Source: an uncultured bacterium
GTDB taxonomy: Bacteria; Verrucomicrobiota; Lentisphaeria; Victivallales; UBA1829
Assembly (NCBI GenBank): GCA_949297765.1
Contig: CASFTV010000006.1
Coordinates: 1 to 64,000 of the forward strand
Length of the DNA stretch: 64,000 nucleotides
Direction of reading: 5' to 3'
Part shown: piece after piece, positions 40,867-42,567 of the stretch
Layout: the number at the start of each line of letters is the position of its first letter
Position numbering within the stretch: position 1 is the stretch's first letter
Made by a program: the position numbers and the translations under genes
Notes under the pieces: generated by a model
Seen by the model: the letters and a program-made list of their open reading frames with translations, nothing else
What the model was told of the DNA's origin: nothing
Database searches by the model: none

Positions 40867-41905
40867 TTCCCCCGCCGCCCACGGTTTCCGGATGCCGCCG
40901 GAATGGAGCCGACAGGAAGCGATCTGGCTTTCCTGGCCGCACAACCCGGATACATGGCCCGGAAAAATGGATGAGGTCCGCCGGATCTTCGCTGTGTTTG
41001 CCGCCACCATCTCCCTGTACGAGAAAGTCTGCATCATCCGGGGAAACGCCCGCCGGGACAGCATTCTGGAACTGCTCTGCGATGCGGGCGCCGATATCTC
41101 CAATGTCGAGCTTTTCGATTTCCGGACCAACGATGTCTGGTGCCGCGACCACGGTCCCGTTTTTCTCCGGAACAATGCGACGGGCGAACGCGCCGTGGCG
41201 GATTTCTCCTACAACTCCTGGGGCGGGAAATTCCCTCCCTGGAATTTCGACAACGAAATACCTTCCCGGATCGCGGAAACTCTTCATCTCCGCCGCTTTC
41301 CCATTCCTGTGGTCTGCGAGGGCGGCGCGCTGGAAATCAATGGTCTCGGCGATCTCCTGACAACGGAATCCGTCCTTCTGAACGACAACCGGAATCCGGG
41401 AATCGGAAAAGAGGAGATGACCCGGATTCTGAAGGCCGCCCTCGGCGCGGAAAACGTCTTCTATCTCAAGCAGGGAATGACCGGCGACGATACGGACGGC
41501 CATATCGACACCCTTGCCCGTTTCGCCGCGGACGATGTCATTCTTGCCGCGGTCGACGACTCCTCCGAGGGACTCAACAAAACCGTTCTGGATGCGAATC
41601 TCCGGGACCTGGAACGCTTCCGGAACGGGAACGGCAGACAATGCACTGTCATCCCGATTCCCTGTCCCGCGCCGATCCATCCGGAAAACTGGCGGGAGGA
41701 GGTTCTGCCCGCCACCTATGTCAACTATCTCCTGATCAACGGAGCCGTTCTGGTCCCCACCTATCGCGACGACAAACACGACGCCCTCGCCTGCGAACGG
41801 ATCGCCGCCGCGTTTCCCGGGCGGAAATTGGAACCCGTTGACTGTTTCGACATTCTCCTGGAAGGCGGCGCATTGCATTGCCTGAGTCAGCAAATGCCGC
41901 TTTAA
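40856..41905 (+). CDS. aguA: Agmatine deiminase
   Basis: A 349-residue member of the peptidyl-arginine-deiminase-like fold. Conserved points: FRTNDVWCRDHGPVF, EGGALEINGLGDLLTTE, GDDTDGHIDTLARF and the C-terminal Cys nucleophile in EGGALHCLSQQMPL. It converts agmatine to N-carbamoylputrescine and ammonia; with aguB it completes the agmatine to putrescine route. The start at 40856 overlaps aguB by 11 bases, showing translational coupling. An unusual hairpin array begins ten bases after the stop, ending in a bidirectional terminator. Confidence 0.95.
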   Translation: MTFDSPAAHGFRMPPEWSRQEAIWLSWPHNPDTWPGKMDEVRRIFAVFAATISLYEKVCIIRGNARRDSILELLCDAGADISNVELFDFRTNDVWCRDHGPVFLRNNATGERAVADFSYNSWGGKFPPWNFDNEIPSRIAETLHLRRFPIPVVCEGGALEINGLGDLLTTESVLLNDNRNPGIGKEEMTRILKAALGAENVFYLKQGMTGDDTDGHIDTLARFAADDVILAAVDDSSEGLNKTVLDANLRDLERFRNGNGRQCTVIPIPCPAPIHPENWREEVLPATYVNYLLINGAVLVPTYRDDKHDALACERIAAAFPGRKLEPVDCFDILLEGGALHCLSQQMPL

Positions 41906-41914
41906 CGGGGATTT

Positions 41915-42097
41915 CGTGCTCCGCACGACCAGCGTGTTCGCCGCTGGACCGCGACAAGGACAGCGTCCTTGACCCTGGCGGAATGCTTTCCGCATTCCGC
42001 CGTTCCTGATTCTGCCCGGAGGGCCGGGAGCCGCAGGCTCGGTGCAGGTCTCCGACCTGCTTCGGTCCAGCGGAATACGCTGGTCGCCCGCAGGGCG
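41915..42097. repeat. Array of eight perfect hairpins (palindromic element)
   Basis: Stems with arms of 5-10 bp: CGTGC/GCACG (41915-41927), CCAGCG/CGCTGG (41929-41947), CAAGGAC/GTCCTTG (41955-41971), GGCGGAATGC/GCATTCCGCC (41977-42001), GAGCC/GGCTC (42028-42040), GCAGGTC/GACCTGC (42044-42060), CCAGCG/CGCTGG (42067-42083), CGCCC/GGGCG (42085-42097). Five loops are exactly 3 bases. The first two and last two hairpins are mirror images: 41927-41951 and 42063-42085 are inverted copies. No ORF with plausible coding content lies here. It looks like a composite REP/BIME- or MITE-like element. Confidence 0.85.
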
Positions 42098-42103
42098 AAA
42101 TCC

Positions 42104-42141
42104 AAAAAAAAAGGAACTCCCGAACAAGGAGTTCCTTTTTT
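42104..42141. terminator. Bidirectional terminator between aguA and rpsI
   Basis: A 10-bp perfect stem (AAGGAACTCC / GGAGTTCCTT), 7-base loop, nine A on one side and six T on the other. Confidence 0.95.
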
Positions 42142-42162: not shown

Positions 42163-42555
42163 TCAGCGCTTGGAGAACTGGAAGCGTCTTCTTGCGCCCG
42201 GCTGACCGGGTTTCTTACGTTCTTTCTCGCGAGCGTCGCGGGTCAGCATTCCGCTGGCCTTGAGGACGGATTTGCAAGCCTCCTCGTCGTGTTTGACGAG
42301 AGCGCGGGCGAGTCCGTGGCGGACAGCGCCGGCCTGACCGGCTTTTCCTCCGCCGGTGACGGTGGCTTTCACGTCGATTTTTCCGACGAGACCGGTCACA
42401 ACGAGGGGCTGAAGGATATATCCGCGGAGAGCTTCGGTATTGAAATATTCCTCAAACTTTTTTCCGTTGACGGTAATTTTTCCGGTTCCTTCAGCGATGA
42501 CGACTCTGGCGCTGGCGCATTTTCTGCGTCCGGTGGTACGGAGTTCAGTGCTCAT
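42163..42555 (-). CDS. rpsI: 30S ribosomal protein S9
   Basis: A 130-residue protein from ATG 42555; an ATG six bases earlier is too close to the AAGGAG site. Typical S9 features: [12 protein letters not shown], the central [29 protein letters not shown] and a basic C-terminal tail ending RRRFQFSKR, whose last residues reach the P-site tRNA. It follows rplM by 12 bases, the universal rplM-rpsI pair. Confidence 0.98.
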
Positions 42556-42567
42556 TCCCATATCTCC

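What the first reader, a model, noticed from the sequence alone, without database searches (positions are those of the whole stretch)
41915..42141. Array of eight perfect hairpins with inverted ends
Within 183 bp almost every base pair can belong to a short perfect stem; five loops are 3 bases long, and the two outer hairpin pairs are inverted copies (41927-41951 and 42063-42085). This is far beyond chance and has no coding explanation. It resembles a REP/BIME or MITE-type element placed just before a bidirectional terminator, perhaps acting as an mRNA stabiliser, a gyrase/IHF target or a mobile palindromic repeat.
Basis: seen in the sequence. Interest (0 to 1): 0.72.

Follow-up and report, generated by a model that had tools for sequence, protein, structure and literature searches.

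The report
Dispersed mobile hairpin-array repeat pair
The cluster of hairpins is two copies, placed end to end, of a short repeat that sits at about 50 places in this gut bacterium's genome, and a close relative of the repeat in a sister genus has recently jumped in a way that looks like single-stranded-DNA transposition.

Summary
In detail: eight short perfect hairpins, five with 3-base loops, lie at 41914-42098, the densest such stretch in the window. They are two related dispersed repeats set tail to tail between aguA and rpsI: unit A (41909-42003, +, 4 hairpins) and unit B (42103-42013, -, 5 hairpins). The same genome (a Victivallales bacterium) holds about 44 A and 7 B copies; relatives hold dozens to over 100. 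Stems vary by compensatory changes. A homologous unit, C, exists in 17 near-identical copies (150-bp core) in one sister genome; for two of them a relative has the precise empty site. Insertion is 3' of TTCAT or TTTAT without target duplication, and a base beside the left hairpin covaries with that target: the signature of IS200/IS605 (Y1/HUH) ssDNA transposition. The window feature is best read as old, non-autonomous, REPIN/BIME-like mobile palindromic DNA. No RAYT was found, REP's GT[AG]G guide is absent and no autonomous partner is known, so it is not filed as REP. Roles as mRNA stabiliser or IHF/gyrase site were not testable; copy orientation follows the G-rich (probably leading) strand as well as gene sense. 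New variant of a known kind.

The parts
41909..42003 (+). Unit A, four hairpins; one of about 44 copies in this genome
   Evidence: R1 match 41909-42009; alignment A1
41914..41928 (+). A hairpin 1, TCGTGC-TCC-GCACGA
41929..41947 (+). A hairpin 2, CCAGCG-TGTTCGC-CGCTGG
41955..41971 (+). A hairpin 3, CAAGGAC-AGC-GTCCTTG
   Evidence: compensatory A-T to G-C change in other copies
41977..42001 (+). A hairpin 4, 10-bp stem, sequence-variable with compensatory changes
42013..42103 (-). Unit B, five hairpins, opposite orientation; one of about 7 copies
   Evidence: R2 match 42004-42103; alignment A2
42084..42098 (-). B hairpin 1
42067..42083 (-). B hairpin 2
   Evidence: CCAGCG/CGCTGG to CCAGCT/AGCTGG in other copies
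42044..42060 (-). B hairpin 3
42028..42040 (-). B hairpin 4
42015..42028 (-). B hairpin 5 (weak), CCCGG-AGGG-CCGGG
   Evidence: sequence; B consensus fold
41909..41951 (.). Left arm of the long-range palindrome; pairs with 42063-42103
42063..42103 (.). Right arm of the long-range palindrome
42107..42141 (.). Intrinsic-terminator-like hairpin between convergent genes; probably rpsI's, not part of the repeat

Best explanation
The feature is a composite of two related non-autonomous mobile palindromic repeats (units A and B, each an array of 4-5 hairpins) that have spread through Victivallales genomes as DNA. The likely route is single-stranded-DNA transposition of the IS200/IS605 (Y1/HUH) type: a folded single strand with hairpins near its ends is cut and pasted 3' of a short sequence, TT(T/C)AT, read by bases next to the left hairpin, preferentially on one replication strand and without target duplication. 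Inverted pairs of units fold into one clover-like structure and form REPIN/BIME-like mosaics that later gain and lose units. Shown: the repeat family, maintained pairing, intergenic placement, strand bias, and precise insertions of the homologous C unit in a sister genus. Inferred: that A and B moved the same way, that a Y1 enzyme acted in trans, and that the window copies are now old and inert.
For: About 44 A and 7 B copies at unrelated places; dozens to over 100 in relatives. Compensatory pair changes above shuffles. A, B and C share a core and cross-match as structure models. In G005, 17 near-identical C copies with sharp ends and unrelated flanks; guide GTTAAT has TTTATT on its left 7/7, guide GTTGAT has TTCAT 9/10 and TTGAT 1/10; no target duplication. 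Two precise empty sites in G013. New copies abut the TTTATT end of older ones. Top strand G-rich by GC3 in 13/17 C copies; element strand G-rich in 33/41 A copies. Clover fold of the C element, z = -5.5. Mechanism traits as described in PMC6006769.
Against: The insertion mechanism is shown only for C, in another genus. A copies of this genome have no evident fixed target, no right-end hairpin, and odd G-rich flanks. No enzyme is linked: Y1 genes are missing or broken in several copy-rich MAGs and carry other end hairpins. The conserved TTCAT could in principle be the element's own end, though one TTGAT case and the empty sites argue for target. Later changes include slippage or recombination.
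Confidence: 0.6

Rival explanations
1. True REP/BIME elements, moved by a RAYT (TnpA_REP) encoded in the same genome and recognised through a GTAG-type guide.
For: Dispersed intergenic palindromes, inverted pairs, tandem clusters, compensatory changes as in REPINs (PMC3116915).
Against: Only an IS200-type TnpA in the own genome; no Y1 gene found in G001, G002, G025; no unit beside any Y1 gene. No GT[AG]G at stem feet in the consensus.
Confidence: 0.12
2. A structured RNA element in 3' UTRs (mRNA stabiliser, attenuator or terminator) kept by selection on the transcript; spread is secondary.
For: 31 of 39 A copies lie downstream of a same-strand gene, often within 100 bp of its stop; codirectional pairs 17 sense to 2 antisense. 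Pairing is maintained. One copy persists after the same gene in three congeners.
Against: The strand also has positive GC3 skew in 19 of 21 copies where neighbours are convergent, divergent or antisense, so replication strand may account for the bias. Copies are absent from several orthologous gene ends in congeners. No Rfam family reaches its threshold.
Confidence: 0.15
3. Classical MITE moved by a DDE transposase.
For: Short, non-coding, inverted ends, high copy number.
Against: No target duplication signal in 34 A and 17 C copies; the second empty site excludes the one apparent 5-bp duplication of the first.
Confidence: 0.05
4. Retroposition by a retron-type reverse transcriptase, leaving low-complexity tails on one side.
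For: 28% of 5' flanks are short tandem repeats (6% in controls, none on the 3' side); a retron-like RT is encoded in G000 and similar profile matches occur in G001, G003 and G005.
Against: No RT found in copy-rich G013 and G025; no unit near any RT. The recent C insertions have clean ends.
Confidence: 0.05

Closest known systems
REPINs / BIMEs (PMC3116915)
   Same: Intergenic palindromic units in high copy, inverted doublets and tandem clusters, compensatory changes, a clover alternative fold
   Different: Each half here is itself an array of 4-5 hairpins of about 95 bp; no GT[AG]G guide, no RAYT found; most A copies in this genome are single
IS200/IS605 family and their ends-only derivatives (PATEs; PMC6006769, PMC7290912)
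   Same: For C: subterminal hairpins, insertion 3' of a fixed short target, no duplication, guide-like bases beside the hairpin, strand preference
   Different: Three further hairpins lie between the ends; IS200 copies seen in these genomes have other ends; for A and B no fixed target or right-end hairpin was seen
Atypical repeats of class 3 TnpA_REP (about 600 in Solibacter usitatus; PMC6006769)
   Same: Non-proteobacterial, atypical secondary structures in high copy
   Different: Those flank their transposase gene and have a CnGA foot; no unit lies beside a Y1 gene here

Membership tests
REP/BIME/REPIN | High-copy intergenic palindromic units, inverted pairs possible | tested here: met
REP/BIME/REPIN | GTAG or GTGG guide 5' of the hairpin foot | tested here: not met
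   read from the consensus of A, B and C
REP/BIME/REPIN | RAYT in the genome, flanked by the repeats | tested here: not met
   MAGs may be incomplete
IS200/IS605-type non-autonomous element | Insertion 3' of a fixed short target without duplication | tested here: met
   for unit C only: 17 copies, 2 precise empty sites
IS200/IS605-type non-autonomous element | Same insertion rule for units A and B | tested here: inconclusive
   no duplication in 34 A copies, but no fixed target seen
IS200/IS605-type non-autonomous element | Subterminal hairpins with guide bases that pair with the target | tested here: inconclusive
   hairpins present in C; guide A/G covaries with target T/C in two subfamilies, one exception; pairing itself not testable
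IS200/IS605-type non-autonomous element | Matching Y1 transposase with the same ends | tested here: not met
IS200/IS605-type non-autonomous element | Replication-strand preference | tested here: inconclusive
   GC3 skew proxy 33/41 for A, 13/17 for C; no mapped origin
DDE MITE | Target-site duplication | tested here: not met
Known structured RNA family | Rfam match above gathering score | tested here: not met
Gyrase/IHF-binding BIME or mRNA stabiliser | Protein binding or effect on transcript | not testable with these tools
   needs experiment

The most novel reading that the evidence does not exclude
A, B and C are one previously undescribed superfamily, so far seen only in Victivallales, of ssDNA-transposing elements whose mobile unit is a clover of 4-5 hairpins. 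Target choice is set by a guide base that has naturally switched (TTTAT to TTCAT), and the enzyme is neither a RAYT nor a known IS200 of these hosts.
Probability: 0.3. Interest if true: 0.72.

Novelty: new variant of a known kind. Interest (0 to 1): 0.55.

Why it matters
Genome-wide palindromic repeats have mostly been studied where a RAYT is at hand. Here is a little-studied bacterial order with a recently active relative, precise empty sites and a natural guide-target switch, but no obvious enzyme. That makes guide-directed ssDNA targeting, and the question of what mobilises orphan repeats, directly testable.

Tried and rejected
Rfam, phages and plasmids and IMG/VR with the exact core pattern: no match above threshold. 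RAYT: none. Reverse transcriptase as mobiliser: distribution does not fit. Target duplications: none. Presence/absence at orthologous gene ends in congeners: absent after aguA, folP-like and V-ATPase genes; the macB-like gene keeps a copy in two of them with a different 5' partner; flanks too diverged for exact edges. A paralogous empty site suggested insertion in a terminator T-tract, but its edges were imprecise. A longer element carrying a gene between inverted units was not seen in the fetched loci, but this was not searched systematically. The integron attC idea was dropped because copies are dispersed singly; no integrase search was run.

Full report
Observation. The hairpin array is real and at the stated place: eight perfect hairpins with five 3-nt loops at 41914-42098, the densest stretch in the window, with folding z about -9. 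It lies between aguA (stop at 41905) and rpsI (42163-42561, minus) and is followed by a bidirectional terminator (42107-42141). A similar terminator follows rpsI in relatives that lack the repeat, so it is probably rpsI's own.

What it is. A search of the whole genome (4.23 Mb, 92 contigs) with 41905-42105 gave about 40 further copies of the left half and a few of the right half, each alone. The feature is therefore two repeats. Unit A (+) has the consensus GGATTTCGTGCTCCGCACGACCAGCGTTTCGCCGCTGGACCGCGACAAGGACAGAGTCCTTGACCCGnGAAAAATGCTnCCGCATTTTTCCGTT, four hairpins. Unit B (-) has five hairpins and shares the core TTTCG-stem-CGACCAGC..GCTGGACCG. Covariance models find about 44 A and 7 B copies here. 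In this window A and B are tail to tail; on contigs 53 and 55 a B and an A are head to head.

Stems are kept. In 22 A copies 98.5% of pair cells are paired, and 7 pairs show changes on both sides against 0.8 in shuffles. Unit C of a sister genus shows 5 against 2.0. This could be selection on structure or palindrome-correcting mutation; the data do not separate the two.

Distribution. Congeners G001-G003 have 28-36 matches; G005, G013 and G025 of another genus reach the cap of about 50. With deeper scoring G005 has 114 matches to the A model and 133 to the C model, overlapping sets. Weaker matches occur in other families of the order. An exact core pattern over 84,980 species found 38 stretches, in records titled Victivallales, Lentisphaeria or 'uncultured bacterium'. 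Viral contigs, phages and plasmids gave none.

Context. With a hexamer gene model trained on the window, nearly all copies are intergenic. Of 39 A copies with a called 5' gene, 31 have it on the same strand; codirectional pairs are 17 sense to 2 antisense. The element strand also has positive GC3 skew in 33 of 41 copies, and antisense genes show +0.156 on that strand. Reading together, the skew is positive in 19 of the 21 copies whose neighbours are convergent, divergent or antisense. Orientation therefore follows the G-rich strand, probably through replication; that last step is inference.

Mobility. The A copies here are old (median 85% identity, best 98.9%) and show no target duplication. 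The evidence for movement comes from unit C in genus g3. In G005, 17 near-identical copies share a 150-bp core with sharp ends: left hairpin, C hairpins 3, 2 and 1, right hairpin, TTTATT. Two subfamilies differ by one base beside the left hairpin: GTTAAT always has TTTATT on its left (7/7); GTTGAT has TTCAT (9) or TTGAT (1). Right flanks show no motif beyond T-rich starts. Of four loci comparable in G013, two have the precise empty site: GGTTCAT|TTCTTGAG against GGTTCAT|[element]TTCTTGAG, and GCTCAT|TTTTACG against GTTCAT|[element]TTTTACG. A third is filled in both; a fourth lacks the element in a diverged spacer. A 5-bp duplication fits the first site but not the second, whereas insertion 3' of the pentamer fits both. 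The exact cut is uncertain by one or two T residues. Some copies abut the right end of a previous copy, which explains head-to-tail arrays. The element has inverted ends and folds as a clover.

These are features described for IS200/IS605: ssDNA substrate, subterminal hairpins, guide bases 5' of the hairpin foot, insertion beside a fixed short target, lagging-strand template preference (PMC6006769). REPINs are the closest functional analogue, with a clover alternative and compensatory changes (PMC3116915). Membership in REP is not claimed: no GT[AG]G guide in the consensus and no RAYT.

Homology of A and B to C rests on significant cross-matches of the structure models and the shared core. That A and B moved by the same mechanism is inference.

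Turnover after insertion. Orthologous loci of G005, G013 and G025 differ by one or two tandem A units, by a C-containing duplicate, or by loss of the roughly 236-bp middle of a longer C-middle-A composite. So copy changes also occur by slippage or recombination.

Unexplained. A copies in this genome have G-rich, C-poor flanks on the element strand (5' skew 0.48, 3' 0.38; other intergenic DNA 0.02-0.10), and 28% of 5' flanks are short tandem repeats against 6% of controls. In one congener the duplicated unit includes half of hairpin 1, which would fit a polymerase stalling at the array; this is only a suggestion.

Limits. The genomes are MAGs, so absence of a transposase is weak evidence. Gene calls are crude. 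Strand bias rests on skew, not on a mapped origin.

Noticed in passing
own genome, flanks of A copies (L032-L061, L167-L180): Flanks are strongly G-rich and C-poor on the element strand and many 5' flanks are short tandem repeats; neither is explained by the insertion model.
   Followed up: partly
L096, L237 and other loci of genus g3: A longer composite of about 410 bp, C unit (minus) - palindromic middle - A unit (plus), occurs in many copies, some in head-to-tail tandem.
   Followed up: partly
L119, L120, L121 (G002, G003): A second palindromic repeat (GAGCCTTTGCG...CGCAAAGGCGTCAGAAGTTT...GCGAGGGGAGAAG...) sits directly upstream of A units, giving tandem composites of about 250 bp.
   Followed up: no
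L319, L318, L322, L323, L330, L328, L327, L332 (G005): In eight of 17 recent C copies the called 3' neighbour gene ends 1-9 bases inside the element's right end, so the element seems to supply its stop codon.
   Followed up: no
L178/L090 and L215-L217, after the folP-like gene: A spacer motif with a run of 7-9 G (..GAGGGGGGGGAAT..) inside a longer possible stem is conserved in four congeneric genomes although its stem sequences differ; may be a structured RNA.
   Followed up: no
L265:1150-2286 (own genome, contig 2): A retron-like reverse transcriptase (best PADLOC profile RT_X, E 8.6e-79); similar RT matches in G001, G003 and G005.
   Followed up: partly
L031 (own genome, contig 38): An intact IS200-type TnpA gene (157 aa, PF01797) with its own end hairpins, unrelated in sequence to the repeat.
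   Followed up: partly
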